Source: Paracoccaceae bacterium (lineage in GTDB: Bacteria; Pseudomonadota; Alphaproteobacteria; Rhodobacterales; Rhodobacteraceae). Taken from it: a stretch of DNA of 64,000 nucleotides. Positions 25,708 to 44,944 of this stretch are shown piece by piece (within the stretch, counting starts at the first letter, position 1; each line of letters starts with the position of its first letter). The notes beneath the pieces are model-generated. The model was not told the DNA's origin. It saw nothing but the letters and a program-made list of their open reading frames with translations, and made no database searches. Position numbers and translations under genes: made by a program. The stretch is from the NCBI GenBank assembly GCA_014879735.1, contig JACSRN010000062.1, forward strand, positions 1-64,000. Reading direction: 5' to 3'.

Positions 25708-26850
25708 ATGGCCGCACCTTTGGAAGGGCTGCGCGTCGTCGAGCTTGCGCGGATCCTGGCCGGCCCCTGGGCCGGACAGACGCTGGCCGATCTGGGCGCC
25801 GAGGTGATCAAGGTCGAGGCGCCGGAAGGCGACGACACGCGCCGCTGGGGACCGCCGTTCATCGAGCGCGAGGACGACCGCAGCGCTGCCTATTTTCATG
25901 CCTGCAATCGCGGCAAGAAAAGCATCACCTGCGACTTTCGCACGCCCGAAGGCCAGGAGGTCGTCCGCGATCTGGTGGCCGGGGCGGATGTGGTGATCGA
26001 GAATTTCAAGGTGGGCGGGCTGGCGAAATACGGCCTGGACTGGGAAAGCCTGCGTCGGGTGAACCCGCGGCTGATCTATTGCTCCATAACCGGCTTCGGC
26101 CAGACCGGACCCTACGCCCATCGGGCGGGCTACGACTTCATCATCCAGGGCATGGCGGGGTTGATGAGCGTGACCGGCGAGCCCGAGGGGCAGCCGCAAA
26201 AGGTGGGTGTTGCCGTGACCGATGTCTTCACCGGCATCTATGCGGCGACGGCGATCCTGGCTGCGGTCGTGCAACGGGCACGCACCGGCGAGGGTCAGAT
26301 GATCGACATGGCGCTGATGGATGTTGCAACATCCATCATGGCCAACCAGGCGATGAACTATCTGGCGACCGGCACGCCGCCGCGCAAGATGGGCAATGCG
26401 CATCCCAATCTTGCGCCCTATGCCGTCTTCGACTGTGCCGACGGCTGGATCATCCTTGCGACCGGAAACGACAGCCAGTACCGCAAGCTTTGCGGTATCC
26501 TGGGGCTTGCCGACATGGCCGAGGCGCCGGAATTCCTGACGAATGCCGACCGGGTGACAAACCGCGCGGCGATGACCGAACGGATCCTGGCAGCAACGAA
26601 GGGCTGGCAGAAGGATGCGCTGCTGGCGGCCTGCGAGGCGGCAGGCGTGCCCGCCGGGCCGATCAACGACATGGCCGAGGTCTTCGCCGACCCGCAGGTG
26701 ATTGCGCGCGGCATGCGGATCGACCCCGAGGGCGTGCCGGGGGTGCGAACGCCGATCACATTCTCGGACGCGGATCTGGCGCTGGACCGTGCCTCGCCGC
26801 GGCTGGGCCAGCATCAGGACGAGATTCTGGCGGGCTCCAAGGGATCGTGA
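25708..26850 (+). CDS. CaiB/BaiF family CoA-transferase
   Basis: LEGLRVVELARILAGPWAGQTLADLGAEVIKVEAPEGDDTRRWGPP. Confidence 0.93.
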   Translation: MAAPLEGLRVVELARILAGPWAGQTLADLGAEVIKVEAPEGDDTRRWGPPFIEREDDRSAAYFHACNRGKKSITCDFRTPEGQEVVRDLVAGADVVIENFKVGGLAKYGLDWESLRRVNPRLIYCSITGFGQTGPYAHRAGYDFIIQGMAGLMSVTGEPEGQPQKVGVAVTDVFTGIYAATAILAAVVQRARTGEGQMIDMALMDVATSIMANQAMNYLATGTPPRKMGNAHPNLAPYAVFDCADGWIILATGNDSQYRKLCGILGLADMAEAPEFLTNADRVTNRAAMTERILAATKGWQKDALLAACEAAGVPAGPINDMAEVFADPQVIARGMRIDPEGVPGVRTPITFSDADLALDRASPRLGQHQDEILAGSKGS

Positions 26851-26861
26851 AAATAAATTAC
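26849..26861 (+). promoter_or_regulatory. RpiR-like operator A1 (GAAAATAAATTAC)
   Basis: 11-12/13 match to the other sites; 73 bp upstream of site A2. Confidence 0.6.
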
Positions 26862-26890
26862 ATGCATGCGGCTCGACGCTCGCATGCATG
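26861..26890. repeat. Perfect 10-bp inverted repeat, 10-nt loop
   Basis: CATGCATGCG-gctcgacgct-CGCATGCATG. Confidence 0.85.
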
Positions 26891-26921
26891 CTTGATCTTG
26901 CGCCAACCCTGCGGGTATCGT

Positions 26922-26934
26922 GAAAACGAATTAC
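26922..26934 (+). promoter_or_regulatory. RpiR-like operator A2 (GAAAACGAATTAC)
   Basis: 16-nt CGTGAAAACGAATTAC identical to 40614-40629. Confidence 0.7.
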
Positions 26935-26952
26935 TCTGCATCGGAGCGCGCC

Positions 26953-27345
26953 ATGTCCGACCCCCGTCTTGTTCGCTATGACACGGCCGACCCGCAGGCG
27001 GGCGGCACCCGACGGCCCTTTGCCAAGGCGGTGCGGGCGGGTGATTATGTCCATGTTTCCGGGCAGGTGCCCACCGTCAACGGCGAGGTGGTGCAGGGTG
27101 GCATCGTCGCCCAGACCGAACAGGTGATCGAGAACATCAAGGCGGTTCTGGCGCTGGCGGGCTGCGGGCTGGAAGATGTGATCAAGGTGACATGCTGGCT
27201 GGACGACCCTCGGGACTTCTCCAGCTTCAACGCGGTGTTCGAACGGCATTTCGGTCCGAACCCGCCTGCACGCTCCACCGTCCAGTCGAGGCTGATGGTC
27301 GATGCCAGGGTGGAAATCGACGCCATCGCCTGGAAGCCGCTGTGA
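26953..27345 (+). CDS. RidA/YjgF family protein
   Basis: DYVHVSGQVPTVNGEVVQGGIVAQTEQVIENIKAVLALAGCGLEDVIKVTCWL. Confidence 0.92.
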   Translation: MSDPRLVRYDTADPQAGGTRRPFAKAVRAGDYVHVSGQVPTVNGEVVQGGIVAQTEQVIENIKAVLALAGCGLEDVIKVTCWLDDPRDFSSFNAVFERHFGPNPPARSTVQSRLMVDARVEIDAIAWKPL

Positions 27346-28121
27346 AGGTCTTGATCCACCCGACGCCCGAGGCCGGTGCCGATTGCGTAGCGGCGCTGAT
27401 CGCCGCACGGCTGCGGCGGCGGTCCGCGCCGGTGCTGGGCCTTGCGACTGGGGGCACCATGGAGGCGGTCTATGCCCGGCTGATCGCGCAGCACCGCGCC
27501 GGCCGCTGCAGCTTTGCCCAGACCGAGACCTTCAACCTTGACGAATATGTCGGGCTGGCGCCGGATCATCCCTGTTCCTACTGGCACTACATGCGGGCGC
27601 AGTTGTTCGACCATGTCGATATCGCGCCGGGCCGCTATCATCTGCCGCGCGGCGATGCCCCTGACCCCGAGGCCGAGGCGGCGCGCTACGAGGCGGCGAT
27701 CTTGGCGGCCGGCGACATCGGGCTGCAGCTTCTGGGCCTTGGCGCCAACGGCCATATCGGCTTCAACGAGCCGACCTCCAGCCTGTCGTCGCTGACCCGG
27801 ATCAAGACGCTGACCCGCTCCACCCGCGAGGCGAATGCGCGCTTTTTCGACCGGCCCGAAGACGTGCCGCGGCTGGCGATCACCATGGGAATAGGCACCA
27901 TCCTGCGCGCAGAGGAAGTGGTGCTTCTGGCCTATGGCGCGGGCAAGGCCCGCGCTGCGGCGGCAATGATCGAGGGGCCGCTGTCCGCGGCCTGCCCGGC
28001 CTCGGTGCTGCAGATGCACCGCAGGGCCACCGTGGTGCTGGACGAGGCGGCGGCGGCCGAACTGAAGCTGCGCGACTATTACGAGGATATCCACCCCGAA
28101 GGCCGCGACCGGCCGATCTGA
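27342..28121 (+). CDS. nagB: Glucosamine-6-phosphate deaminase (GTG start)
   Basis: VLGLATGGTMEAVYARL; FNLDEYVGLAPDHPCSYWHYM; LGLGANGHIGFNEP; start overlaps RidA stop. Confidence 0.88.
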   Translation: MKVLIHPTPEAGADCVAALIAARLRRRSAPVLGLATGGTMEAVYARLIAQHRAGRCSFAQTETFNLDEYVGLAPDHPCSYWHYMRAQLFDHVDIAPGRYHLPRGDAPDPEAEAARYEAAILAAGDIGLQLLGLGANGHIGFNEPTSSLSSLTRIKTLTRSTREANARFFDRPEDVPRLAITMGIGTILRAEEVVLLAYGAGKARAAAAMIEGPLSAACPASVLQMHRRATVVLDEAAAAELKLRDYYEDIHPEGRDRPI

Positions 28122-28837
28122 TCCAGCGCCTGCCGCAGCGCCTGCACCTTGGCGACATCCGTTCCGCGTGCCCCGGGAAGCTGAAAGCCGAAGGCCGCGA
28201 TCCGCGAATCTTCCGGATCGGGCAAAGCGGAGGCGCAAGAGGCGTGAACCTCGGTCACGGGCAGCCATTCTGCCAGCAGCGATGCGTTCGCGGCGGTGAT
28301 GCCGCCGCCGGGCATCACCGTGACGCCCATCGCCGCGGCCGCCATCTGCAACAGTCGCGGCAGCCCCTGTACCGCGGTTCCCGCGCCGCCCGAGGACAGC
28401 ACCCGGCGGATACCGAGGTCGCGGCAAAGCTGCATCGCCGCAGCCGGATCGGGCGCAAGGTCGATGGCGCGGTGCAGCGTGATATCCATGCCGCCGGCCG
28501 CGGCGACAAGCCGTGCCAACGCGGCGGCATCCAGCCGTCCGTCGGGGTATGAGGCGCCGATCACCACGCCGGCCAGCCCGAAGTCCCGCGCCGCGGCGAT
28601 TTCGACCTCCATCGCGCGCAGATCGTCGGGCGACCAGACGAAAGCGCCGGCGTGCGGCCGGATCATGGCCAGGACCGGCAGGCCGCAGTCCGCCGCCTGC
28701 GCCATCAGCCCCGCCGAGGGCGTCAGCCCGCCCATCGCCAGCGCCGCGCAAAGTTCGATCCGGTCTGCCCCGCCCGCCACGGCGGCGGCAATCCCGGCGC
28801 AATCATCGACACATACTTCCAGCAGGATGCGGCTCAT
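28079..28837 (-). CDS. cutC: CutC family protein
   Basis: LLEVCVDDCAGIAAAVAGGADRIELCAALAMGGLTPSAGLM; MIRPHAGAFVWS. Confidence 0.9.
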   Translation of the reverse strand: MSRILLEVCVDDCAGIAAAVAGGADRIELCAALAMGGLTPSAGLMAQAADCGLPVLAMIRPHAGAFVWSPDDLRAMEVEIAAARDFGLAGVVIGASYPDGRLDAAALARLVAAAGGMDITLHRAIDLAPDPAAAMQLCRDLGIRRVLSSGGAGTAVQGLPRLLQMAAAAMGVTVMPGGGITAANASLLAEWLPVTEVHASCASALPDPEDSRIAAFGFQLPGARGTDVAKVQALRQALDQIGRSRPSGWISS

Positions 28838-30171
28838 CCGCGCCTCCGTTCAAGACCGACAAGCAGCGCCGCCCCGGCGACGCCTGTGATGCCCGACAGC
28901 ACGGCGGCCAGGCCATAGCTGCCGACGGCGGTTCCAAGTGCAAAGATGCCCGCGCCGAGCGCACCGCCGGCAAACATGTTCACCGCGATCAGCGAGGCGG
29001 ACAGCCCCGGCCGATCTCGGATCAGGTCGAGCAGATAGGAGATCGGCAGCGAGATGATTCCGGCGGCAGCAAATCCGGCGATGACGCTGGCGGCATAAAC
29101 CTGCCAGGGCGATGTGGCCAGCGCCAGCGCCGCATCATATGCGAGATAGAACACCGCCGTGATCAGCAGCGCATGGGTCAGCGCCAGCCGTCGCGTTGCC
29201 TGGACCCAGAAGATCATGAACACGACCTCCAGCCCCGCCACCATGCCGACGATCAGCCCGATATCCTCGGCCCGTCCGCCGGCCTGGCCGGTCAGGATCA
29301 TCGGCAATACCGTGCTGTTCACATGCAGAACCTGGCTGATCAGCGCCACGCCCAGGATGCGAAGCGCCACGCCGGGCGAAAACAGCAGGGCCATCCCGGC
29401 CGGCGGCTGGGCCAGCCGCACCTGCGCCGGCCGGTCCGGGCGCCCGGCGGTGGGGGCGACACGGGCGGTTCCCGTGCCACCTTCCGGCAAGGCCTCGGGT
29501 CCCGGCGCGTGATCGGGTCCCGGCACGTGATCGGCCTCGGGGGCGTGATCGGACCCGGATGCGTGATCGGCTCCCGGTGCCTGATCGCGTGGCAGCCAGA
29601 ACACGACGATCGCCAGCAGGCAACCGGCCAGCCCCGTGGCGATGGCCCAGGCGCCGATCATCGAGCTGCGCCCGGCCAGCGCCAGCCCCACCGCCCCGGG
29701 GACCAGAACCCAGGACAGCGAAATCATGATCCGCATCAGCGCGTTGACGACATGCGCCTCCTCGGGCGCCAGCCGGTCGGCCTGCGCCCGGACATTGCCG
29801 AACAGCATCGAGTTGGTGGCATGGAACAGCGCCAGCGGACCGATGGTCGCCAGCGCGAAGACCGCCGGCGTGGGGAAGGCCCAGATCGCGCCATAGCCGA
29901 GAACGCCGAAGGCCGAGACGAAGATCAGCGGGCGGCGATAGCTGCGGAAGCGGTCTGACAACATGCCGAAGGCGATGGACAGCACCACGTTCGAGATCGA
30001 GGCGGCCAGCGCAACAGCGGCATAGGTTGCATCCGACAGGCCGAGTTCGGTGATTCCCAGCACGGCCTGGTAGGGCGAGGTCGCTGCACCCGCAACGCCA
30101 TAGAAGAAGATTGCCGCCGCAGAGGCGCGCACAAAGGCGTGCCGCCCGAGTATGGAAAGCCAGAGCCGCAT
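28834..30171 (-). CDS. MFS transporter with central His-Asp repeat loop
   Basis: 12-TM-like hydrophobicity; FGMLSDRFRSYRRPLIF MFS loop; DQAPGA-DHASGS-DHAPEA-DHVPGP-DHAPGP between the two halves. Confidence 0.85.
   Translation of the reverse strand: MRLWLSILGRHAFVRASAAAIFFYGVAGAATSPYQAVLGITELGLSDATYAAVALAASISNVVLSIAFGMLSDRFRSYRRPLIFVSAFGVLGYGAIWAFPTPAVFALATIGPLALFHATNSMLFGNVRAQADRLAPEEAHVVNALMRIMISLSWVLVPGAVGLALAGRSSMIGAWAIATGLAGCLLAIVVFWLPRDQAPGADHASGSDHAPEADHVPGPDHAPGPEALPEGGTGTARVAPTAGRPDRPAQVRLAQPPAGMALLFSPGVALRILGVALISQVLHVNSTVLPMILTGQAGGRAEDIGLIVGMVAGLEVVFMIFWVQATRRLALTHALLITAVFYLAYDAALALATSPWQVYAASVIAGFAAAGIISLPISYLLDLIRDRPGLSASLIAVNMFAGGALGAGIFALGTAVGSYGLAAVLSGITGVAGAALLVGLERRRG
29497..29586. 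repeat. Five tandem 18-bp units in the MFS gene
   Basis: GGGTCCCGGCGCGTGATC, GGGTCCCGGCACGTGATC, GGCCTCGGGGGCGTGATC, GGACCCGGATGCGTGATC, GGCTCCCGGTGCCTGATC. Confidence 0.9.
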
Positions 30172-30174
30172 GCG

Positions 30175-31608
30175 CTAGCCCATGAAGCGGGCCGAGGCCT
30201 GCGGCTCGGGCAGAAAGTTGTCGCGGCGGTCGAAGGGCAGGATGCCCGGGCTGCGATGCAGGTTCTGCAGTCGCGGGATGTCCTGGTTCACCGTGCCGTC
30301 GGTCAGGGCCATCAGGTTCGGATTGGCAAGAGGTGCCAGTTCCGGCGACAGATAGCCCGATTTCACCACCAGAAGTGCGGCGGACGATGGATCGAGGCCA
30401 AGCCGGGTGAAGTCGGCGATGTTGTGATAGGGCCGGCGGCGCGCGGCCAGAACGACGCTGATTCCGCCGATCCGCACCACCGCTTGCCGATCCGCGGCCG
30501 CCTCGCCCTCGTCCAGCCGGACCACCTCGGCCTGGGTCCTGACCGAGGCACCCGCCGGATCGAGGCTTGCGCCGATCGTCAGCAGCAGCTGCGCGCCCGG
30601 GCCGGCGGCGAAACAGGCGTCGACGGCGGGGGCATCGGCAATGCCGGCAACCAGCGCCTCGGGCCAGTGGCGTTCCAGCAGCGCGACCAGCACGTCGGCG
30701 CGGTCGCCGGCGCCACCGCCCGTGGGATTGTCGCCGGAATCTGCCAGGATGACCGGGCGCGAACCGGCATGGGCGGCCGCGTCGAGCATCTTGTCAAGCG
30801 GGCCGGTCTCGGGGCCGAACCGAAAGCGGTCGCGGGCGGCCCAGAAACGGGTGGCAATGGCGCCGCCCGCCATCTGCGCTGCCGCGCGGTCTGTGCCGGT
30901 CACGATGGCCGCCGCGGTGGCCCGTGGTTCGTCGGCCCAGACATAGCCGATCATCAGATCGGCCCGCCACACCCCCGGCCCCTCCTCTGCCGGCAGCGCC
31001 GCGTAAAGCGACCGTGCCGGTTCGTCCTCGGTCGAGGAGCGCTCGCCCGGCAGCAGAAGCGGCACCGGAACCCGCACCACCCCCGGCCGTGCCCCGGTCT
31101 CCAGCGCGCGGATCAGCATCGCGACGGCGGCATCCATGGTTTCGGTCACATCGATATGCGGTGCGGTACGGTAGGCCGCAAAGATGTCGATGGCATCGAC
31201 GATGGCCTGCGAGACGTTGCCATGCAGATCGTAGCTGGCGGCGATCAGCATGTCGGGGCCGATCGCCGCGCGGACAGCAGCGATCCAGTCGCCTTCGGCA
31301 TCCCACATGCCCTCGACCTTCATCGCGCCATGCATCGCCAGATAGACCGCGTCGAAGGGTTTCGCCGCCTCCAGCCGTTCCAGGAATTCGGCCTTGAAGG
31401 CGTCGTAGGTGGCGCGGGACACCGGCCCGCCGGGAACGGCGCGGGCATGCAGCAGCGGTGCGATTCCGGCCGGATGGCGGCGCAGAAAGGCGAAATAGTC
31501 GTGCGCGGCCAGCGCCTCGCCGCGCAGCACGCGGAAATCCCCGGTCTGGGTCAGCACGGGGGAGTAGGTCGAAGATTCGGTATGGATTCCGCCGACAGCG
31601 ATGCGCAT
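30175..31608 (-). CDS. M81-family metallopeptidase (MlrC-like)
   Basis: MRIAVGGIHTESSTYSP; YLAMHGAMKVEGMWDAEGD; YDLHGN; DSGDNPTGGGAGD. Confidence 0.88.
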   Translation of the reverse strand: MRIAVGGIHTESSTYSPVLTQTGDFRVLRGEALAAHDYFAFLRRHPAGIAPLLHARAVPGGPVSRATYDAFKAEFLERLEAAKPFDAVYLAMHGAMKVEGMWDAEGDWIAAVRAAIGPDMLIAASYDLHGNVSQAIVDAIDIFAAYRTAPHIDVTETMDAAVAMLIRALETGARPGVVRVPVPLLLPGERSSTEDEPARSLYAALPAEEGPGVWRADLMIGYVWADEPRATAAAIVTGTDRAAAQMAGGAIATRFWAARDRFRFGPETGPLDKMLDAAAHAGSRPVILADSGDNPTGGGAGDRADVLVALLERHWPEALVAGIADAPAVDACFAAGPGAQLLLTIGASLDPAGASVRTQAEVVRLDEGEAAADRQAVVRIGGISVVLAARRRPYHNIADFTRLGLDPSSAALLVVKSGYLSPELAPLANPNLMALTDGTVNQDIPRLQNLHRSPGILPFDRRDNFLPEPQASARFMG

Positions 31609-31618
31609 GGATCCGTCC

Positions 31619-33523
31619 TCAGAGTGTCGGGTGCAGCCTGGCCTGCACGGCAAAGCGCAGCCAGTCCTTGTTGGCGGAATGGGTCCAGCCGGCCTCGGCC
31701 ACCGCGGAAAGCCGCGGAAAGACCAGATCGTTGAACCAACCCGTCGTGGTGAAATGTTCGCACCAGATGCAGGCCTGGATGCCGCGCATCCGGTCGCGCA
31801 GCGCTTCGGGAAAATCGCCTTCGGCCTCATAGGCATAGGTCTGCGCCGGCGGTACCGGCCCGGCCCAGCCGGCGCCATTTTCCAGCCAGTCCGGCCCCTG
31901 CACCATGTCGAGGTAATAGGCCTGCCCCGGCGTCATCACCACGTCATAGCCCTGACGGGCGAGTTCGATCCCCACCTCGGGCTTTTCCCAGGCCATCAGT
32001 ACGGTATCCTCGGGCGGGACACCGCCGCCATGGGCGACCTCGTTCCAGCCGACAAGCACCTTGCCGCGTGCCGTCAGCATGGCCTTGATCCGCTTCAGGA
32101 ACCAGCTTTGCAGTTCGAAGGTGCTGGCCAGCCCCTCGCGCTGCATCAGGATCCTGGCCTTCGGGCTTTCCATCCAGGCATTCTTTGCCACCTCGTCGCC
32201 ACCGATATGGAAATGGCGCGACGGAAAGATGGTGCAAAGCTCGTCGATGACGGCCTCGAGAACGGTGAAGGTCTCCGGCACGCCCGGATTCCAGGAATTG
32301 TTCGGATAGCCCTGCACCGGATGATAGCTGTCGGGCGTTTCGTCCGGATCGACAAGGAACGGCAGGGCCGCGACGACGCAGGCGGCATGTCCCGGCGTCT
32401 CGATCTCTGGCATCACCTCGATGCCAAGGGCGCCGGCATGGGCCACGACCTCGCGCATCTGATCCTGCGTGTACCAGCCGCCTTGCCGGCCTGGCCCGTC
32501 GCCCAGCTGCGGCAGCATCGCCGGCGTGGCGGCGCTGCGGTGGGCGCCGGCTTCGGTCAGTTGCGGATAGGCCTTGATCTCGGCCCGCCAGCCCTCATCG
32601 TCCGTCAGGTGCCAGTGAAACAGGTTCAGCCGGTGCCATGCAAGGATGTCGATGACCCGCTTGACCTCGGACAGGCTCCAGAAATGGCGCGAGACATCGA
32701 GGTGGCAGCCGCGCCAGCCATAGCGCGGGGCATCCTCGATCGTGCCGGTGGCGGGGAAGCGGAACGTCGGATCGGCAAAGGCGCCGTGCAACATCTGCGC
32801 CAGCGCGACCAGCCCCCAGCGCCGTCCGGCCTCGGTGCCGGAGGCAAGGGTGATCGCGCTGCCGAAGGTCAGGCGATAACCTTCGGCGGGAAGGGTGGGA
32901 TCGTCGGCAAAGGCCAGTTGCCGCGTGCCCGGCGCGGCAGAGATCTGAAACAGCCGGCGCGCGGCGGGAAAGAGCCGGCGGTGCAGCGCATCGACCGACA
33001 GCGCCAGCCGCTTGTCGGCCAGAGTTGCGGCGGGCGACAGGTGCAGCATCACCGGCGCGTCGCCCGGCACGGCCGAAATCGAATTCGGCCAGGGCAGCAA
33101 GGCGAAGGGCAGGGTCAGGCGGCCTTCGGGCAGGCGCGGCGGCGGCAGGGCGGGGATTTCATGCCCCTGGATCAGATCGCCGGTCATCACCTCGGCATTT
33201 GTGCCATCGGGAAAGGTGATCCACGCGGTCTTTGCCGCGTCGTTGCGATGGAAGGGCGAGCGGAACAGACCCTTGGCCTCGAATTCCCACACCGCACCGG
33301 GGGAAAGCTCCGTCCCCTCGAAGGGTGCAAATTCGTGATAATTCGCCACGCGGCGCAGAAAGCGGGCGCCGCGGACCTCGTGCACCGGCATGATGCGGGT
33401 GATGGTTGTCACCGACAGGCTGAAATCCGACAGCGTCCGGTCCGACAGGTTGATCAGCCGCAAGTGCCAGGTGCCGGCGGGCAGGGGGTCGGGTGTCCAG
33501 CGGTTTTCGAGAAGGAAGGTCAT
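31619..33523 (-). CDS. Beta-N-acetylhexosaminidase (GH20), no signal peptide
   Basis: Catalytic FHIGGDEVAKNAW; LDVSRHFWSL; NLFHWHLTDDEGWR; MPEIETPGH. Confidence 0.92.
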   Translation of the reverse strand: MTFLLENRWTPDPLPAGTWHLRLINLSDRTLSDFSLSVTTITRIMPVHEVRGARFLRRVANYHEFAPFEGTELSPGAVWEFEAKGLFRSPFHRNDAAKTAWITFPDGTNAEVMTGDLIQGHEIPALPPPRLPEGRLTLPFALLPWPNSISAVPGDAPVMLHLSPAATLADKRLALSVDALHRRLFPAARRLFQISAAPGTRQLAFADDPTLPAEGYRLTFGSAITLASGTEAGRRWGLVALAQMLHGAFADPTFRFPATGTIEDAPRYGWRGCHLDVSRHFWSLSEVKRVIDILAWHRLNLFHWHLTDDEGWRAEIKAYPQLTEAGAHRSAATPAMLPQLGDGPGRQGGWYTQDQMREVVAHAGALGIEVMPEIETPGHAACVVAALPFLVDPDETPDSYHPVQGYPNNSWNPGVPETFTVLEAVIDELCTIFPSRHFHIGGDEVAKNAWMESPKARILMQREGLASTFELQSWFLKRIKAMLTARGKVLVGWNEVAHGGGVPPEDTVLMAWEKPEVGIELARQGYDVVMTPGQAYYLDMVQGPDWLENGAGWAGPVPPAQTYAYEAEGDFPEALRDRMRGIQACIWCEHFTTTGWFNDLVFPRLSAVAEAGWTHSANKDWLRFAVQARLHPTL

Positions 33524-33530
33524 CGCGGTC

Positions 33531-34292
33531 TCAGTAATCGGCGGATTGGGTGAAGGTGCGGGCCAGGGCCGGCACGCCGGCGGTCAGGCCGCAATCGACG
33601 GGCAGGCAGATGCCGGTGATCGCGGCGGCAAGGGGCGAGGCCAGAAAGCCGACCGCCTCGGCCACGTCCTGCGGGGCGACGATCCGGCCCAGCGGGTAAT
33701 GGGCGGCGGCCTCAGCGAAGACATCGGGGTTCTGGGCCGCCCGTGCCTCCCAGGCCTGGGTGCGGACGGTGCCGGGGGCGACCGCATTGGCGCGGATGCC
33801 GAAGCGGCCGTATTCCACGGCGATCAGCCGCGTGAGATGAATCATCCCGGCCTTGGCCGCGGCATAGGCCGGATGACCGTAGACGCCGAAGCCATTGACC
33901 GAGGCGATGTTGACCACCGCGCCATGGGTGGCCTTCAACTGCGCCTCGAACGCGCGGAAGACATAGAACGGCGCGTCAAGGTTCAGCGCCCGGTCGGCCT
34001 GCCAGTCGGCGGCCGAGGTCGATTGCAGGCTGGCCGCCTGCACGCCGCCGGCGTTGTTCACCAGGGTCGCCACCTGCCCCAGCGCCGCGCAATCCGCGGC
34101 CGCACGGGTGCAGCTTTCCGGGTCGGTCACATCCATCTGCAGTGCCACCGCACCCAGCGCATCCGCGGCAAGCTGCACCGCCGCAAGATTGCGGTCGGTC
34201 ATCACCACCAGATCATGGTCTGGGGCCAGCCGGGCCGAGATGGCACGGCCGATGTCCCCGGCTGCTCCGGTCACAAGGGCCAGACGCTTCAT
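33531..34292 (-). CDS. SDR-family oxidoreductase
   Basis: LVTGAAGDIGRAI; LVNNAGG; YAAAKAGMIHLTR. Confidence 0.92.
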   Translation of the reverse strand: MKRLALVTGAAGDIGRAISARLAPDHDLVVMTDRNLAAVQLAADALGAVALQMDVTDPESCTRAAADCAALGQVATLVNNAGGVQAASLQSTSAADWQADRALNLDAPFYVFRAFEAQLKATHGAVVNIASVNGFGVYGHPAYAAAKAGMIHLTRLIAVEYGRFGIRANAVAPGTVRTQAWEARAAQNPDVFAEAAAHYPLGRIVAPQDVAEAVGFLASPLAAAITGICLPVDCGLTAGVPALARTFTQSADY

Positions 34293-34361
34293 GGAAAACT
34301 CCGGTCTGCGGCAGGAAGGATGCGCCGGGGCGGGCCGCCTGCCGCCACCGGCCGCAGGGGT

Positions 34362-35273
34362 CTAGTCACCCAGAAGCTGACGGTCGTCGCCATCGCGATG
34401 CAGGATCAGCTGTTCCTTGATGCCGCGCAGGATTCGGGCTGACCGCGGTCTGTTGGCATAGGCGACAAGGTTGGCAAGGATGTCGATCACGGCAAGAAAG
34501 GCGTAACGGGTGGATGTGGCACGAAAGATGTTCTTCCCCTCGGGCAGATTCACCGGGATCACGACGTCGGCCGCCCGGGCAACGGGCGAGTCGCTTTGCG
34601 TCAGGGCGATGGTCGGGATGCCGCGCCGCTGCAGCAGCTGAAAGCAGCGCACCAGTTCCATGTTGCGGCCCGAGAAGGACGACCCGAAGACCACTGTTCC
34701 CGGTTCCGCCGCCGCCGAAAGCATGAGGTTCATGCCGTGATCGTTCGAGGCCGAGATCCGGCAACCCAGCCGGAACAGCCGGTTCTGCAATTCGTTCACG
34801 ATCATGCTGGAATTGCCGCCGGCGCCGAATCCGTAGATCGACTGGGCCCCGGCCAACATCCGTGCCGCCCTTTCGATCAAGGGCAGATCCAGCGCCCGAT
34901 GCACTTCGTAAAGCGCGTTCTGCGCCTTGGTCACTATGTCCTCGGCCACCTCGGCCGGGGTCGAGGTCACGGCCTCGGGCTTCAGGTAGCGCAGGCCGAC
35001 ATAGGCGCTTTTCGCCAGCCGGACCTTGAAGTCGGAAAAGCTGGCGCAGCCAAGCCGGCGGCAGAACCGGGTGACGGTCGGTGGCGAGACGCCGGCGCCG
35101 GCGGCGATTTCGGTGATCGAGGCATTGGTGGCGGCGTTGACGTCCGACAGCACATATTCCGCCAGCTTCTTTTCCATCGTCGAAAGCCGGCCCTCTTCGT
35201 CGGCAAGGGCAAGGATCAAATCCGGGGTGGCCACGGATCCCGGCTGCAGTGCAATGGCGTCGTCTTCCGGCAT
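34362..35273 (-). CDS. MurR/RpiR-family transcriptional regulator
   Basis: ITEIAAGAGVSPPTVTRFCRRLGCASFSDFKVRLA HTH plus SIS domain; start at 35273 favoured by AGGGAGAGG RBS over the 35384 ORF start. Confidence 0.92.
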   Translation of the reverse strand: MPEDDAIALQPGSVATPDLILALADEEGRLSTMEKKLAEYVLSDVNAATNASITEIAAGAGVSPPTVTRFCRRLGCASFSDFKVRLAKSAYVGLRYLKPEAVTSTPAEVAEDIVTKAQNALYEVHRALDLPLIERAARMLAGAQSIYGFGAGGNSSMIVNELQNRLFRLGCRISASNDHGMNLMLSAAAEPGTVVFGSSFSGRNMELVRCFQLLQRRGIPTIALTQSDSPVARAADVVIPVNLPEGKNIFRATSTRYAFLAVIDILANLVAYANRPRSARILRGIKEQLILHRDGDDRQLLGD

Positions 35274-35356
35274 GGACACCTCTCCCTGCGGCCGGGCGCC
35301 AGTCACTCCACGCGAACCCGGGGCTTTCTTCTGCGCCCCCAAAATCCGGGGTTGCA

Positions 35357-35369
35357 GAAATTCATTTTC
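35357..35369 (-). promoter_or_regulatory. RpiR-like operator B1 (GAAAATGAATTTC on minus)
   Basis: 14-nt GAAAATGAATTTCT identical to 40690-40703; dyad GAAAnTnAnTTTC. Confidence 0.65.
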
Positions 35370-35377
35370 GTTCTTCC

Positions 35378-35407
35378 TTGACATTTAGCCATGTCTCTCC
35401 CGATTAT
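35378..35407 (+). promoter_or_regulatory. Possible sigma70 promoter (TTGACA-n18-GATTAT)
   Basis: Perfect -35 hexamer, 4/6 -10 between B1 and B2. Confidence 0.35.
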
Positions 35408-35429
35408 TCCAGAAGATACGCAGCTGGGA

Positions 35430-35442
35430 TAAAATTTTTTTC
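35430..35442 (+). promoter_or_regulatory. RpiR-like operator B2 (TAAAATTTTTTTC)
   Basis: 7/8 match to the GAAAnnnnnTTTC dyad; 73 bp from B1. Confidence 0.45.
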
Positions 35443-35456
35443 AAGAGGCGTCCAAG

Positions 35457-35963
35457 ATGACGGCAGAGCGTGATCCTTTCCTGAACCCCTTCCCCGACAG
35501 CGATGCGGACCGCCGGGCGATCTGGGAAATGCTGGTCCCTCGTGACATCGACGCTTTCGTATCGGCCGATTGGGGAATGGTCGAGGATGATTTCATTCCG
35601 GCCGGCTTCACCGGCGTCTCGGGGCATTTCCAGTCCGATCCGCAGGGCTTCACCTTGGCTTTCCCGACACTGGATGTCTATCGGGCGGAATGGTTGCGCC
35701 AGGCGCGCAGCTTTGGCGCGGATCGGGCGGCCGGGCGCTTTGCCGGCGACCCGCGCGCCGGCATCTTCGCCGCCACCCGACTGGAAGAGATCGATATCGC
35801 CGGTGATGCCGCGCTTGTGCGCAAGAAATTCGACGGGCGGCTGGCGAAAGCCGACGGCGGTTTCGACCGGATGAACTGGCAGACACTTTATATCTGTCGC
35901 AGGCAGGGCGGGCGGTGGAAGATCGCCGGCTTCGTCGGCTACTTGCCCCATATCAAGGAATGA
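35457..35963 (+). CDS. Small hypothetical protein, NTF2/SnoaL-like
   Basis: 168 aa; first gene of plus operon, ATGA-coupled to next gene; C-terminal YICRRQGGRWKIAGFVGYLPH. Confidence 0.7.
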   Translation: MTAERDPFLNPFPDSDADRRAIWEMLVPRDIDAFVSADWGMVEDDFIPAGFTGVSGHFQSDPQGFTLAFPTLDVYRAEWLRQARSFGADRAAGRFAGDPRAGIFAATRLEEIDIAGDAALVRKKFDGRLAKADGGFDRMNWQTLYICRRQGGRWKIAGFVGYLPHIKE

Positions 35964-37471
35964 TCATGCCCGGTGCGGCCCAGAAGCGGATTTTCACCGC
36001 GGCCCTTGCGACGGAAACGAATACCTTCGCCCCCATCGTCATCGATCGGCGGGGGTTCGAGGGCTCGCTCTACGCGCTGCCCGGCCAGCACCCCGCGACG
36101 CCAACCCTGTGTACCGCGCCGATTCCCGTGGGCCGCCGGATCTGCGCCGAGAGGGGCTGGACCCTGATCGAGGGGACCGCCGCCTGGGCCGATCCTGCGG
36201 GCCTCGTCTCCCGCGGGGCCTACGAATCGCTGCGTGACGAGATCCTCGGCCAGTTGCGCGCCGCCCTGCCGGTGGACGGGGTGGTGCTGGGCCTGCATGG
36301 CGCGATGGTGGCGCAGGGCTATCTTGACCCCGAGGGTGATTTCCTGTCGCGCGTGCGGGAAATCGTTGGCCCCGACATCCTTGTCTGCGCAGAGATCGAC
36401 CCGCACAGCCACCTGACTGCCGCCCGCGTCGCCGCGGCCGATTTCTTTGTGGCGTTCAAGGAATTTCCCCACACGGATTTCGTCGACCGGGCCGAGGACC
36501 TGTGGCGCATCGCCGTCGATACGCTTGAAGGCCGGGTGCATCCGGTCATGTCGGTGTTCGATTGCCGGATGATCGATGTCTTTCCAACGTCACGCCAACC
36601 GATGCGCGGCTTCGTCGACCGGATGATGGAGATCGAGCGGACCGACCCGAAGGTGCTGTCGCTTTCGGCCATCCATGGGTTCATGGCCGGCGACGTGCCA
36701 GAGATGGGCACCAAGATGATTGCCGTCACCGACGGCGATCCCGGTCACGGCGCCGCCCTGGCCGCGCGGCTGGGCCGGGAACTGTTCGCCAACCGCGGCC
36801 GTCACATGATGCCGCAGATCGACGAGACCGAGGCGGTGGCCCGCGCCATGGCGGCATCTGCACATCCGGTGGTGATCGCCGACATGTGGGACAATCCCGG
36901 CGGCGGCACGGCCGGCGATGCGACGGTGGTGCTGAAGGAGCTCATTTCGTGCGGCGCGACCGGGGTGGCGATCGGTACGATCTGGGATCCCGTGGCGGTA
37001 CAATTGTGCTTTGTCGCCGGCGAAGGGGCCGAGATGCCCCTGCGGTTCGGCGGCAAGTCGGCGCCCCTGACCGGCGAGCCCTGCGATGCCCTGGTTCGCA
37101 TCGTGGCGCTGAGCGAGACCGCCGAGATGAAGTTCGGCGAAAGCGTCGTGCCGTTCGGCCCCGCGGCGCGCATCGCGCTTCTGACATCGGAGGGCGCAGA
37201 GACCGGGATCGAGGTCATCCTCAACACGATCCGCGCGCAAAGCTACGACCCCTCGCTGTTTCTCGCGCTGGGCATCGACCCGGTCACGCAGCGGATCCTG
37301 GTCATCAAATCGACCAATCATTTTTATGCGGCCTTCGCGCCGATCGCGGCGGAAATCCTGTACTGTTCGGCCGGAAAGCCCTATCCCAATGATCCGGCAA
37401 CCAACCCCTACCGGCTGGTCCGCAAGGACATCTGGCCGCGCATGGCCGACCCGTTCGGCGAGGAGTCCTGA
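35960..37471 (+). CDS. M81-family metallopeptidase (MlrC-like), second paralogue
   Basis: IFTAALATETNTFAPI; VLGLHGAMVAQGYLDPEGD; EIDPHSHLT; MWDNPGGGTAGD. Confidence 0.88.
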   Translation: MIMPGAAQKRIFTAALATETNTFAPIVIDRRGFEGSLYALPGQHPATPTLCTAPIPVGRRICAERGWTLIEGTAAWADPAGLVSRGAYESLRDEILGQLRAALPVDGVVLGLHGAMVAQGYLDPEGDFLSRVREIVGPDILVCAEIDPHSHLTAARVAAADFFVAFKEFPHTDFVDRAEDLWRIAVDTLEGRVHPVMSVFDCRMIDVFPTSRQPMRGFVDRMMEIERTDPKVLSLSAIHGFMAGDVPEMGTKMIAVTDGDPGHGAALAARLGRELFANRGRHMMPQIDETEAVARAMAASAHPVVIADMWDNPGGGTAGDATVVLKELISCGATGVAIGTIWDPVAVQLCFVAGEGAEMPLRFGGKSAPLTGEPCDALVRIVALSETAEMKFGESVVPFGPAARIALLTSEGAETGIEVILNTIRAQSYDPSLFLALGIDPVTQRILVIKSTNHFYAAFAPIAAEILYCSAGKPYPNDPATNPYRLVRKDIWPRMADPFGEES

Positions 37472-38556
37472 TGTTTCCCTGGCCCGAACCCGGACAGAAC
37501 CTGTCTGACGTGCCGACGCCGATGGCGGTGATCGACGAAGACCGCCTTGCCGCCAACATCGCCCGCGCGCAGGCCTATATGAATGCCCATGGCAAAGCGT
37601 TCCGTCCCCATATCAAGACGCACAAGATCCCGGCCGTGGCGCGTGCGCAGATGGCGGCCGGCGCCTGCGGCCTCAACTGCCAGAAGCTGACCGAGGCCGA
37701 GGTCTTTGCGGCCGCCGGCTTTCAGGACATCCTGATCACCTACAATATCCTTGGCCCGGCACGCCTGGCCCGGTTGCGCGCGCTGAACGATGCGGTGCCC
37801 CGGCTTGTGGTCTGTGCCGACAGCGAGACCACGGTCGAGGGTTATGCGCGCACCTTCGCATCGGCAAAACCACTGCATGTGCTGGTTGAATGCGACACCG
37901 GAGCCGGCCGGGTCGGCGTGCAGTCGCCCGCTGCAGCCGCGGCGCTGGCCGGGCAGATCGCTGCCGCGCCGGGGTTGGTCTTCGACGGCCTGCTGACCTA
38001 CCCCCCCGTGGGCGGTGCCGAACGGGTGGAGGCCTTCCTGTCGGAAACCATGGCACTGCTGGCGGCCCAGGGGATCGACTGCCCGGTGCGGTCGAACAGC
38101 GGCAGCCCGGATCTGTGGAAGGCGCATCTGGTGCCTTCTGCCACCGAACACCGCGCCGGCACCTATGTCTACAACGACCGCAGCATGGTGCGTGCTGGCG
38201 AATGCAGCCGCGACGATCTGGCGATGCATGTGCTGGCCACCGTCGTTTCACGCCCGACACCGACGCGCGCCGTGCTGGATGCAGGGTCAAAGGCGCTGAC
38301 CTCGGATCTGCTGGGCTTCACCGACCATGGCGAGATCGAGGAACTGCCCGGCGCCCGCATCCTGTCGTTGTCCGAGGAACATGCGGTGGTCGACCTGTCG
38401 GCCTGCACCGCGGCCCTGCCCGCGGTGGGGGATGTGGTCCGGGTGATTCCGAACCATACCTGCGTGGTGTCGAATCTGTTTGACCGCATGGTGTTTCATC
38501 GCGACGGCGTGGTGACGCGGGTCGAGGATGTCGCCGCGCGTGGTACGGTCTGGTAG
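37471..38556 (+). CDS. DSD1/D-threonine aldolase-like PLP enzyme
   Basis: FRPHIKTHKIPAVARAQMAAGACGLNCQKLTEAEVF; PNHTCVV metal-site motif; ATG overlaps preceding stop. Confidence 0.85.
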   Translation: MFPWPEPGQNLSDVPTPMAVIDEDRLAANIARAQAYMNAHGKAFRPHIKTHKIPAVARAQMAAGACGLNCQKLTEAEVFAAAGFQDILITYNILGPARLARLRALNDAVPRLVVCADSETTVEGYARTFASAKPLHVLVECDTGAGRVGVQSPAAAAALAGQIAAAPGLVFDGLLTYPPVGGAERVEAFLSETMALLAAQGIDCPVRSNSGSPDLWKAHLVPSATEHRAGTYVYNDRSMVRAGECSRDDLAMHVLATVVSRPTPTRAVLDAGSKALTSDLLGFTDHGEIEELPGARILSLSEEHAVVDLSACTAALPAVGDVVRVIPNHTCVVSNLFDRMVFHRDGVVTRVEDVAARGTVW

Positions 38557-38562
38557 GTTGCG

Positions 38563-39687
38563 ATGGAGCAGGCGTTTCACGCCGAACGCATCTTCGACGG
38601 CGCGGTCTGGCACCGGGATGCCGCGCTGCTGGTGAAGGCCGGGCGGGTGGCGGCGATCCTGCCCTCGGCCGCCGCGCCGGCGGGCGAGCGGGTGGCGGAC
38701 TGGCTGGTTCCCGGGCTGATCGACCTGCAGGTGAATGGCGGCGGCGGCGTGCTGTTCAACAACGACCCCACGCCCGAAGGCATCGCCACGATCTGCGCGG
38801 CGCATGCCCGGTTCGGGACCACGGCAACGATGGTCACGCTGATCACCGATCGCCCCGACGTCACCGCCCGTGCCATCGCGGCGGCCGAAGCCGCCCCGCG
38901 GACGCCCGGGTTTCTGGGTCTGCATCTTGAAGGCCCGCATCTGTCGCAGGCCCGCAAGGGCACCCACGATCCCGCGCTGATCCGACCGATGGCGCCGGCC
39001 GATCTGGCGCGGCTGGCCGGGGCGGCCCGCAGCCTGCCGTTCCTCATCTGCACTATCGCGCCTGAGGCGGTAACGCCGGCACAGGTGGCGGCCCTGGCAG
39101 AGGCGGGGGCCGTGGTCAGCCTGGGTCATACCGATTGCAGCGCCGAAACCGCCATGGCCCATGCCGCGGCGGGTGCGCGCATGGTGACGCATCTTTTCAA
39201 CGCCATGAGCCAGTTGCAGCACCGCGCCCCCGGGCTTGTGGGGGCAGCGCTGGATGACGGACGGCTGCATGCCGGGCTGATCGCCGATGGCTTTCACGTC
39301 GCCGATGCTGCGTTGCGGGTGGCACTGCGGGGGAAACAGGGGCCGGGGCAGATGTTCCTGGTCTCGGACGCGATGTCGACCATCGGCACCGATCTGGGAG
39401 GCTTCACCCTGAACGGACGGCAAATCTTCCGCCGGGGGGGGCGGCTGACGCTGGCCGACGGCACGCTGGCCGGGGCCGATATCGCGCTGATCGATGCGGT
39501 GCGCCATTGCCATATGGCGCTGGGTCTGCCGCTGGAGCGGGCGCTGGCGCTGGCTACCGCCGCGCCCGCCGCCGCAATGGGCATCGTGGACCGCGGCCAC
39601 CTGCGCCCCGGCGCGGCAGCCGATTTCCTTGCCCTGACGCCGGGCGTCGAGGTGGCCGCCACCTGGATTGCGGGGGTGCGCGCGTGA
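38563..39687 (+). CDS. nagA: N-acetylglucosamine-6-phosphate deacetylase
   Basis: VPGLIDLQVNGGGGVLFN; LGLHLEGPHLS; TDCSAETAMAHAAAGARMVTHLFNAMSQLQHRAPG; LVSDAMSTIG. Confidence 0.93.
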   Translation: MEQAFHAERIFDGAVWHRDAALLVKAGRVAAILPSAAAPAGERVADWLVPGLIDLQVNGGGGVLFNNDPTPEGIATICAAHARFGTTATMVTLITDRPDVTARAIAAAEAAPRTPGFLGLHLEGPHLSQARKGTHDPALIRPMAPADLARLAGAARSLPFLICTIAPEAVTPAQVAALAEAGAVVSLGHTDCSAETAMAHAAAGARMVTHLFNAMSQLQHRAPGLVGAALDDGRLHAGLIADGFHVADAALRVALRGKQGPGQMFLVSDAMSTIGTDLGGFTLNGRQIFRRGGRLTLADGTLAGADIALIDAVRHCHMALGLPLERALALATAAPAAAMGIVDRGHLRPGAAADFLALTPGVEVAATWIAGVRA

Positions 39688-40589
39688 TCCTGTGTTTTGA
39701 CATCGGCGGCACAGCGATCAAGTCGGCCGAAGCCTTCTCGCCCACCGACATCCGCCCTGGCGCCCGCGTCGCCACGCCGGCGCAGGATTACGGGCTGTTC
39801 GTGCAGGCCCTGCGCCTGGCCGTGGCTGGCGCTTCGGTGCCGCCGTCAGGCCTGGCCTTCTCGATTGCCGGGGTGATCGACCCGGAAACCGGCCGCGCCA
39901 CAGTGGCGAACATTCCCTGTCTGATGGGCCGGCGCCTGCAGGCGGATCTTGAAGCCGATCTCGGCCTGCCGGTGGTGCTGGCGAATGACGCCGACTGTTT
40001 CGCACTTGCCGAGGCTACCGTCGGTGCCGGGCGCGGGCATGACGTCGTCTTCGGAATCATCCTGGGCACCGGGGTCGGCGGCGGTATCGTGGTCGGCGGC
40101 AGGCTGATCAACCCCGCCGGTGGCTTTGCCGGTGAATGGGGCCATGGGCCCATCGCGCAGCGCATCGTCGGCGATGTTACCCTGCCTGCCTTTCCCTGCG
40201 GCTGCGGGCAGGTTGGGTGTCTCGACGCCATCTGCTCGGCCCGCGGCATGGAAAAGCTGCATGCGCATCTGTCGGGCGAGATGCTGGATTCGGTCGGCAT
40301 CGTCGGTGGCTGGGAGGCGGGCGCGCCTGCCGCCTCGCGGACCGTGGCGATCTGGCTGGAACTTCTCGCCGGACCGCTGGCCATGGTCGAGAACATGCTG
40401 GGTGCCGGGATCATGGCGGCCGGTGGCGGGCTGTCGAATTCTGCGCGGCTGATCGCAGCGCTGGATCTGGCGGTACGGGCCCGCACCCTGCGCCGATTCG
40501 ACCGGCCGCTGATCGTTCGTGCGGAGTGCGACATCGAGCCCGGTCTGGTCGGGGCCGCGGTTCTTGGCCTGGGGCGGTTCATCTCCTGA
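39684..40589 (+). CDS. ROK-family kinase, likely N-acetylglucosamine kinase (GTG start)
   Basis: LCFDIGGTAIKSAE; ANDADCFALAEA; GTGVGGGIVVGG; CGCGQVGCLD Zn motif. Confidence 0.88.
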   Translation: MILCFDIGGTAIKSAEAFSPTDIRPGARVATPAQDYGLFVQALRLAVAGASVPPSGLAFSIAGVIDPETGRATVANIPCLMGRRLQADLEADLGLPVVLANDADCFALAEATVGAGRGHDVVFGIILGTGVGGGIVVGGRLINPAGGFAGEWGHGPIAQRIVGDVTLPAFPCGCGQVGCLDAICSARGMEKLHAHLSGEMLDSVGIVGGWEAGAPAASRTVAIWLELLAGPLAMVENMLGAGIMAAGGGLSNSARLIAALDLAVRARTLRRFDRPLIVRAECDIEPGLVGAAVLGLGRFIS

Positions 40590-40616
40590 TCCGGCGGGGA
40601 TCTCCGTCGCGAACGT

Positions 40617-40629
40617 GAAAACGAATTAC
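40617..40629 (+). promoter_or_regulatory. RpiR-like operator C1 (GAAAACGAATTAC)
   Basis: Identical to A2; 73 bp upstream of C2. Confidence 0.7.
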
Positions 40630-40689
40630 ACAGATGGCGGCAGTGTTATAAATTTTCTTGACGCAGCCTGTGGTATGTCGCATGTTTTA

Positions 40690-40702
40690 GAAAATGAATT
40701 TC
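40690..40702 (+). promoter_or_regulatory. RpiR-like operator C2 (GAAAATGAATTTC)
   Basis: Identical to B1; 18 bp upstream of the Gfo/Idh start codon. Confidence 0.7.
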
Positions 40703-40719: not shown

Positions 40720-41877
40720 ATGAAAGTCGCGATCATCGGTCTGGGCTACCGGCTCGGCTATCTCGGCCATGTGTTCCGCGAGCTGGATCCCGACTTCCAG
40801 ATCGTCGGCTATGTCGATCCCAACCCCGCCGGCATGGAAACCCTGCAAAATTACGGCATTTCTGCCGGCACGGCCCATGACACGCCGGAAAGCCTGATCC
40901 GCGCCGGCGGGTTCGACCTGCTGATGATCGGCTCGCCCAACCATATGCACCTCGACCATATCCGGCTGGGACTGGAGGCCGGGCTGAAAGTGTTTTCCGA
41001 AAAGCCCATTGTCGCCTCGATCGAGCAGACCTATGCGCTGGCCGGCCTTCTCGGTCGCTATGGCCATGAGAACCTCTCGGTCGGCCTTGTCCTGCGTTAT
41101 GCGCCGCTCTACCGCGACCTGCTGAAGGCCCGCGACGACGGGATCCTCGGCAGTATCGTCTCGGTCGAGGCGGCGGAGCATATCTATCCCTACCACGGCG
41201 CCTTCTTCATGCGGGACTGGCGGCGCTATGAGAAATGGTCGGGCAGCTTCATGCTGGAAAAATGCTGCCATGACCTTGACCTCTACAACGGCCTGATTGG
41301 CGCGCGGCCGGAGCGGGTTGCCAGTTTCGGCGGCAGGAAGACCTTTGTCCCGGCGAACGATCCCCGCACCTATGGGGTGAACGACCTGGCGCTGTTCCAC
41401 CGCAAGCCCTCGGGCTGGAACGGGTCGGACAAGGTGTTCGATTCCGATGGCGACATCATCGACTATCAGGTGGCCATCGTCGAATATGCCAATGGCGTGG
41501 GGATGAACTTCCACACCAACCTGAACGCCCCCGACCAGTTCCGCCGCTTTGCCGCCTTCGGCACCAAGGCGCAGGCCGAGGGCGATTTCATCCGCGGCTA
41601 CTTCAACGTGACCGACGTTCTGAGCGAGAAGCGGGTGATCGAGAAGGAATACAAGGCAACCGCCCTGTCGCAGCACTATGGCGCCGACGAGGAGATGGCC
41701 GCAGGCATCATCGCCAATGTGATGCGCGGCGCGGCGCTGCCGGTCTCAACGCTGGATGCGCTGGAGGCGGGGATCCTGGCGCTGACGATGGACGATGCGC
41801 GGCGCACGCGCAGCGTGGTCGATCTGCGCCCGATCTGGGACCGTTACGACAACGCTTTCCACAGCAAGGCGGCGTGA
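40720..41877 (+). CDS. Gfo/Idh/MocA-family oxidoreductase
   Basis: MKVAIIGLGYRLGYLGHVFRELDPDFQIVGYVDPN; SEKPIVASIEQTYAL. Confidence 0.9.
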   Translation: MKVAIIGLGYRLGYLGHVFRELDPDFQIVGYVDPNPAGMETLQNYGISAGTAHDTPESLIRAGGFDLLMIGSPNHMHLDHIRLGLEAGLKVFSEKPIVASIEQTYALAGLLGRYGHENLSVGLVLRYAPLYRDLLKARDDGILGSIVSVEAAEHIYPYHGAFFMRDWRRYEKWSGSFMLEKCCHDLDLYNGLIGARPERVASFGGRKTFVPANDPRTYGVNDLALFHRKPSGWNGSDKVFDSDGDIIDYQVAIVEYANGVGMNFHTNLNAPDQFRRFAAFGTKAQAEGDFIRGYFNVTDVLSEKRVIEKEYKATALSQHYGADEEMAAGIIANVMRGAALPVSTLDALEAGILALTMDDARRTRSVVDLRPIWDRYDNAFHSKAA

Positions 41878-41880
41878 GCC

Positions 41881-42765: not shown

Positions 42766-42769
42766 TGCC

Positions 42770-43639: not shown

Positions 43640-43666
43640 GTCCAATCACAACCGGGAGTAAGTGAC

Positions 43667-44884: not shown

Positions 44885-44892
44885 CCCCCCCC

Positions 44893-44918: not shown

Positions 44919-44944
44919 ACCCACGTCCAAGGAGTGCGCGCCGC

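What the first reader, a model, noticed from the sequence alone, without database searches (positions are those of the whole stretch)
26849..40702. Three promoter regions share paired RpiR-like operators, each pair exactly 73 bp apart
Seen directly: GAAAATAAATTAC at 26849 and GAAAACGAATTAC at 26922; GAAATTCATTTTC at 35357 and TAAAATTTTTTTC at 35430; GAAAACGAATTAC at 40617 and GAAAATGAATTTC at 40690. Start-to-start distance is 73 bp in all three, about 7 turns of B-DNA, which puts both sites on the same face. The sites fit GAAAAYRAATTWC with a GAAAnnnnnTTTC dyad, and each pair sits in front of one of the three transcription units of the amino-sugar island (ridA-nagB; the divergent rpiR / plus operon; Gfo/Idh-ABC). 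Inference: the RpiR protein (34362-35273) binds as a multimer and represses by DNA looping. The fixed 73-bp geometry would be a new regulatory architecture for this island.
Basis: partly seen in the sequence, partly recalled or inferred. Interest (0 to 1): 0.88.

Follow-up and report, generated by a model that had tools for sequence, protein, structure and literature searches.

The report
Paired sugar-repressor sites, phased for looping
A bacterial amino-sugar gene island carries pairs of probable repressor-binding sites set about seven turns of the DNA helix apart, and in dozens of related species the spacing stays fixed or changes by whole turns, which suggests the repressor clamps two sites at once and bends the promoter into a small loop.

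Summary
Five of the six sites are the only exact GAAAAYRAATTWC matches in the 4.39-Mb genome, at the stated coordinates. The sixth (35430) is a degraded form of a conserved site. All three pairs are 73 bp apart.

The spacing is not chance. In 80 orthologous loci (Rhodobacteraceae, Rhizobiaceae and relatives), partner sites sit at 73 bp (53 cases), 72 (13) and 74 (11), against about 0.03 per distance elsewhere. It recurs at the ridA, rpiR/ORF168, Gfo/Idh, nagA and mlrC2 promoters.

Two natural experiments favour a rigid operator pair. First, departures are close to whole helical turns: 83/84 bp in one clade (73 at its other promoter), 95 bp in one genome, 63 bp in another whose other pairs are 74. 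Second, the pair sits about 20 bp differently relative to the -35 box at ORF168 than at Gfo/Idh, yet the spacing stays 73.

Best explanation: RpiR dimers on the two operators join as a tetramer and hold the promoter in a roughly 7-turn loop, relieved by an amino-sugar phosphate. Binding, tetramers and looping are inferred, not shown. New variant of a known kind: E. coli MurR and S. pneumoniae NanR are the nearest precedents, with different geometry.

The parts
26849..26861 (+). distal operator of ridA-nagB, GAAAATAAATTAC; its first two bases are the end of the upstream CaiB-like gene's stop codon
   Evidence: exact consensus match, one of five in the genome
26922..26934 (+). proximal operator of ridA-nagB, GAAAACGAATTAC, 73 bp from the distal one
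   Evidence: exact consensus match; phased pairs at orthologous ridA promoters
26892..26897 (+). candidate -35 of ridA (TTGATC), 43 bp from the distal and 30 bp from the proximal operator start
   Evidence: read from sequence; tentative, the -10 is poor
34362..35273 (-). RpiR-family regulator (HTH_6 + SIS), the presumed binder
   Evidence: Pfam; nearest solved structures 8ju9, 8k3b, then 4ivn and MurR
35357..35369 (-). strong operator between rpiR and ORF168, GAAAATGAATTTC on the minus strand; distal operator of the ORF168 operon
   Evidence: exact consensus match; conserved in orthologues
35378..35407 (+). ORF168 promoter core: TTGACA (35378-35383), 18-bp spacer, GATTAT (35402-35407); -35 begins 21 bp after the distal and 52 bp before the proximal operator start
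   Evidence: read from sequence; TTGAC position conserved in about 36 loci
35430..35442 (+). degraded proximal operator of the ORF168 operon, TAAAATTTTTTTC; orthologues have GAAAN4TTTC
   Evidence: weak match, clear dyads at the orthologous place
40617..40629 (+). distal operator of the Gfo/Idh-ABC operon, GAAAACGAATTAC
   Evidence: exact consensus match
40658..40686 (+). Gfo/Idh promoter core: TTGACG (40658-40663), 17-bp spacer, CATGTT (40681-40686); -35 begins 41 bp after the distal and 32 bp before the proximal operator start
   Evidence: read from sequence; TTGAC position conserved
40690..40702 (+). proximal operator of the Gfo/Idh-ABC operon, GAAAATGAATTTC, overlapping the predicted transcription start
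   Evidence: exact consensus match; position relative to the promoter inferred
26953..28121 (+). target unit 1: ridA-nagB
   Evidence: Pfam and NCBIfam
35457..40589 (+). target unit 2: ORF168, M81/MlrC-like, D-threonine-aldolase-like PLP enzyme, nagA, ROK kinase
   Evidence: Pfam and NCBIfam
40720..46069 (+). target unit 3: Gfo/Idh dehydrogenase and a sugar ABC transporter
   Evidence: Pfam and NCBIfam, ORF list

Best explanation
Each target promoter is flanked by two operators for the island's own RpiR-family protein. One dimer binds each operator, and the two dimers join through their SIS domains into a tetramer. The roughly 73 bp (7 helical turns) carrying the promoter core become a small closed loop or wrap that excludes RNA polymerase. 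A phosphorylated amino sugar from the pathway (GlcNAc-6-P or GlcN-6-P are the candidates) binds the SIS domain and relieves this. The pair acts as one rigid module: its spacing can change by whole helical turns, and it can sit about two turns differently relative to the promoter. Shown by computation: the sites, their rarity, their conservation, the spacing distribution and the two kinds of displacement. Inferred: RpiR as the binder, tetramer bridging, repression, the effector.
For: Five exact sites in the genome, all here. Spacing peak at 73 +/- 1 over 80 loci against 0.03 per other distance; 92 of 142 distinct regions at 71-75 bp against 8.9 for shuffled patterns. Same spacing at several different promoters in one genome: 41 loci with at least two phased regions, 13 with at least three, a few of which count one shared intergenic region twice. 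Near-whole-turn variants 63, 83/84 and 95 bp; in the 83/84 clade the rpiR promoter keeps 73 wherever scored. Compensated shift relative to the -35 box: 42+31 at Gfo/Idh, 22+51 at ORF168, total 73 in both. The operators flank the rpiR gene itself in most loci and, in the family, occur in genomes that carry the island. Even a 46%-identical RpiR (G095) has a 72-bp pair next to it. Family precedent: RpiR structures are tetramers with the effector at the tetramer interface; MurR is proposed to bridge two operators (PMC12713135). Lac loops of 6-8 turns repress in a phase-dependent way (PMC5081198).
Against: No binding, oligomer or expression data. Only three independent whole-turn jumps were seen. 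The second ORF168 operator is degraded in the window itself. In the Yoonia clade the ridA promoter shows no clear pair, so the pair is not needed at every target. About a third of distinct regions have no clear phased pair; some lack sites or were mis-bounded. A 73-bp loop is short and needs bent DNA or an extended tetramer. The bhcR-bhcA intergenic region of an IclR system shows similar 71-74 bp dyads, so spacing of this size is not unique to RpiR.
Confidence: 0.72

Rival explanations
1. Two independent dimers: the proximal one blocks the transcription start, and the distal one acts on RNA polymerase from a helically phased upstream position, as class I regulators do. The constraint would be site-to-promoter, not site-to-site.
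For: Distal-site distances to the -35 box (about 22, 42, 52 and 65 bp) are themselves roughly in phase. At Gfo/Idh and mlrC2 the proximal site keeps a fixed distance of about 30-31 bp from the -35 while only the distal site moves.
Against: At ORF168 the proximal site also moves by about 20 bp, so that the total stays 73; this model has no reason for that.
Confidence: 0.15
2. The spacing is conserved only by common descent of the promoter regions and has no function.
For: Gene order and promoters are orthologous across the loci, and the 83/84 state is a single clade.
Against: Promoters of different genes in one genome share the spacing, the DNA between the sites has diverged widely while the length is held within about 2 bp, and the length changes seen are near whole turns.
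Confidence: 0.05
3. Another regulator, for instance an IclR-family protein, binds these dyads rather than the RpiR protein.
For: The bhcR(IclR)-bhcA intergenic regions have similar paired GAAAN5TTTC dyads at 71-74 bp, so the motif and spacing are not unique to RpiR.
Against: The dyads lie in front of and around rpiR and its conserved island in most loci, and GAAA...TTT-type dyads fit a known RpiR site (S. pneumoniae NanR TCTGAAAGTACTTTTAGA, PMC12713135).
Confidence: 0.05

Closest known systems
E. coli MurR (RpiR family) at its adjacent operator pair
   Same: RpiR-family repressor; a tetramer is proposed to bridge two operators overlapping the promoter (PMC12713135)
   Different: Sites separated by only 17 bp, about 47 bp in total; a side-by-side clamp rather than a 7-turn loop
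S. pneumoniae NanR
   Same: RpiR-family; similar GAAA...TTT dyad; effector-stabilised tetramer; DNA looping proposed (PMC12713135)
   Different: An activator with single sites spread over the cluster plus a half-site about 23 bp away; no phased pair
Caulobacter crescentus IolR (RpiR family) at iolC
   Same: Two palindromic operators in one promoter of an alphaproteobacterium, one shown to matter for repression (PMC2597717)
   Different: Motif GGAA-N6-TTCC, 59 bp apart by the published positions, no reported conserved spacing
Lac repressor short loops
   Same: Tetramer bridging two operators around a promoter; in-phase loops of 6-8 turns repress best (PMC5081198)
   Different: Different protein family; the length series was engineered, not evolved
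IclR-family tandem sites
   Same: Comparative genomics shows helically phased site pairs that fit tetramer binding (PMC8222616)
   Different: Preferred distance about two turns (18-22 bp), different family
Pseudoalteromonas ong cluster and its RpiR repressor OngR
   Different: Acts on oxidised GlcNAc with an SSS transporter; no paired operators mentioned in the passages read; the island here has NagA, NagB and an ABC transporter

Membership tests
RpiR/MurR family regulator | N-terminal RpiR-type HTH | tested here: met
   HTH_6 PF01418, E 1.1e-17
RpiR/MurR family regulator | C-terminal SIS sugar-binding domain | tested here: met
   SIS PF01380, E 9.3e-13
RpiR/MurR family regulator | binds a phosphorylated sugar | not testable with these tools
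   inferred from family precedent and the nagA/nagB content
named RpiR equivalogs (HexR, MurR, AlsR) | passes the curated score of a named subfamily | tested here: not met
   HexR 159.7 of 296 bits, AlsR 108 of 400, MurR 57.5 of 408
looping repressor with paired operators | two operators flanking one promoter | tested here: met
   promoter cores are predicted, not mapped
looping repressor with paired operators | helically phased spacing | tested here: met
   63, 71-75, 83/84 and 95 bp; three independent jumps
looping repressor with paired operators | tetramer or other bridging form | not testable with these tools
   only family precedent
looping repressor with paired operators | phase-dependent repression in vivo | not testable with these tools
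   needs reporter assays

The most novel reading that the evidence does not exclude
A clade of RpiR regulators uses a rigid two-operator module held at about 7 helical turns (6, 8 and 9 also used), found at several promoters per genome and able to sit at different whole-turn positions relative to the promoter core: a naturally evolved series of DNA-loop sizes for one repressor family.
Probability: 0.55. Interest if true: 0.72.

Novelty: new variant of a known kind. Interest (0 to 1): 0.63.

Why it matters
Loop-size and phase rules were worked out mainly with engineered lac constructs. Here evolution appears to have run a comparable experiment many times: one regulator, several promoters per genome, dozens of genera. 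If true, the RpiR tetramer works on DNA as a bridge, which the recent NanR preprint suspects for the family but could not show. The natural 63-, 73-, 83/84- and 95-bp promoters are ready-made test constructs, and a phased pair is a strong rule for annotating amino-sugar regulons in Rhodobacteraceae and Rhizobiaceae.

Tried and rejected
(1) Chance: rejected by genome-wide rarity and by the background rate at other distances. The shuffled-pattern control is imperfect because a few shuffles reach up to 84 of 142, probably by keeping a similar palindrome; the mean is 8.9. (2) Pairs as one operator per divergent promoter: rejected for ridA and Gfo/Idh in the window, whose upstream neighbours point the same way. 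(3) A general RpiR rule: I searched for phased IolR-type GGAAN6TTCC pairs in 192 alphaproteobacterial genomes and saw no preferred distance. The sample was thin, so this is uninformative. (4) Excess of 71-74 bp pairs in genomes without the orthologue: 11 of 12 such pairs whose loci were checked are the bhcR-bhcA intergenic region, a different (IclR) system, and one is a fragment of this island in an 86%-complete genome. The rest were judged from their sequence only. (5) Apparent 78-bp pairs in four Rhizobium regions: overlapping alternative readings of one A/T-rich stretch; the weighted matrix picks 72 or 73 in most such loci. (7) Genus-level searches added one new genome, with two more pairs, both 73; two earlier attempts failed on the handle format.
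Full report
WHAT IS THERE. The strong consensus GAAAAYRAATTWC occurs exactly five times in the 4.39-Mb genome, always in this island: 26849, 26922, 35357 (minus), 40617, 40690. The sixth site at 35430 is a degraded copy: orthologues carry a clear TGAAAN4TTTCA dyad there at the same distance. The gene at 34362-35273 is an RpiR-family regulator (HTH_6 plus SIS); its closest solved relatives by sequence are 8ju9 and 8k3b, followed by 4ivn and MurR structures.

SURROUNDINGS. The three transcription units are ridA-nagB; ORF168, M81/MlrC-like, D-threonine-aldolase-like, nagA and ROK (divergent from rpiR and the genes behind it); and Gfo/Idh with a sugar ABC transporter. NagA and NagB pass the cutoffs of TIGR00221 and TIGR00502. 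The gene order is strongly conserved in related loci.

COMPARATIVE TEST. I fetched 80 named orthologous loci from Rhodobacteraceae, Rhizobiaceae and relatives and nine from the family sample, which partly overlap them. Anchoring on sites with at least 12/13 matches, a partner with at least 11/13 lies at 73 bp in 53 cases, at 72 in 13, at 74 in 11 and at 83 in 8; distances from 15 to 200 bp outside the peaks average 0.03. Taking simply the two best sites upstream of each gene, after removing similar regions, 92 of 142 regions give 71-75 bp, against 8.9 on average for shuffled patterns. Forty-one loci have at least two phased gene-flanking regions and thirteen have at least three; in L065, L067, L068 and L072 the shared nagA/Gfo intergenic region is counted twice.

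UNBIASED FAMILY SCAN. A search of 298 Rhodobacteraceae genomes for any two GAAAN5TTWC-type sites 58-88 bp apart gave a flat background apart from an excess at 71-74. In the ten genomes with the RpiR orthologue, 14 of 16 listed pairs are at 72-74; the other two are 63 and 83. In the other genomes I checked the loci of 12 pairs at 71-73: eleven are the bhcR-bhcA intergenic region, a separate IclR system, and one is a piece of this island in an incomplete genome. The remaining such pairs were judged from their sequences only.

NATURAL PHASING EXPERIMENT. Departures from 73 are close to whole helical turns. At Gfo/Idh, a single well-supported clade (Yoonia, Loktanella, Pacificibacter, Salipiger and others; 11 rows, support 100/99) has 83 or 84 bp, made by 10-11 extra bases between the distal operator and the -35 box. 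The same genomes keep 73 at rpiR/ORF168 wherever that pair was scored. L069 has 95 bp in front of its mlrC-like gene. G260 has 74 at three promoters and 63 at a fourth, between a GMC oxidoreductase and a TIM-barrel gene. That makes three independent jumps: only suggestive on their own, persuasive together with the sharp main peak.

RIGID PAIR, MOVABLE PROMOTER. At Gfo/Idh and mlrC2 promoters with 71-75 bp pairs, TTGAC begins 41-44 bp after the start of the distal 15-mer. At ORF168 promoters it begins 21-23 bp after, in about 36 loci including Rhizobium. The proximal operator moves the other way by the same amount, so the total stays 73. In the window the values from the 13-mer start are 41+32, 21+52 and, for ridA, 43+30. 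This compensation is the best evidence that the constraint is between the two operators and not between each operator and RNA polymerase.

MECHANISM. The most likely mechanism is bridging by an RpiR tetramer. [quoted passage not shown] Loops of 6-8 turns repress in phase in the lac system (PMC5081198). At Gfo/Idh the proximal operator overlaps the predicted start point; at ORF168 it lies at about +15 to +29 (my estimate from the predicted promoter). In both, the promoter core is inside the loop. The inducer is likely an amino-sugar phosphate, by analogy with the family and from the nagA/nagB content; this was not tested.

WHAT IS NOT SHOWN. There are no data on binding, oligomeric state, transcription or looping for this protein. 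A model in which each dimer acts alone from a phased position keeps about 15%.

NOVELTY. Searches of the open-access library found no report of this operator geometry for an RpiR protein. The library misses most subscription journals, so this is weak evidence of absence. Paired RpiR operators are known (MurR; Caulobacter IolR at 59 bp, PMC2597717), as are tetramer-phased tandem sites in the IclR family (PMC8222616). I therefore call this a new variant of a known kind.

Noticed in passing
L109, L110, L119, L124, L126, L129, L132, L133, L134, L136, L137 (near position 1500): The bhcR(IclR)-bhcA intergenic region of many Rhodobacteraceae carries two GAAAN5TTTC dyads 71-73 bp apart in these loci. 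The Paracoccus BhcR paper (PMC11323563) mentions one potential palindrome only; a phased pair may act there too.
   Followed up: partly
L025:2860-2935: A 63-bp pair between a GMC oxidoreductase and a xylose-isomerase-like TIM-barrel gene, a likely extra target of the regulator in that genome and one helical turn shorter than its other pairs.
   Followed up: yes
window 26861-26890: A perfect 10-bp inverted repeat, CATGCATGCG-N10-CGCATGCATG, inside the ridA operator loop, right behind the upstream gene's stop codon; possibly a terminator or another protein's site.
   Followed up: no
L035, L037, L040, L044, L050, rpiR/ORF168 intergenic region: Yoonia/Loktanella-clade promoters share a CTGGAN4TCCAG dyad between the two operators, which may be a site for a second regulator.
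   Followed up: no
Gfo/Idh promoters of Rhodobacteraceae; in the window about 40645-40657: A weak third GAAA/TTTC-like element lies just upstream of the -35 box (offsets 33 and 40 from the two operators in relatives), absent in Rhizobium; it may be a half-operator or an UP element.
   Followed up: partly
L035, L037, L042, L044, L047, L050, L053, ridA upstream: The 83/84-bp clade shows no clear operator pair in front of ridA, so ridA-nagB may have left the regulon there.
   Followed up: partly
window 37471-38556: The D-threonine-aldolase-like enzyme is distantly related to BhcC, 3-hydroxy-D-aspartate aldolase. With RidA and RpiR the island recalls the ong cluster for oxidised GlcNAc (PMC9537276).
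   Followed up: partly
window 30175-31653 and 35948-37471: Two M81/MlrC-like (microcystinase-family) proteins in one amino-sugar island, kept together in many relatives; their substrate is unknown.
   Followed up: no
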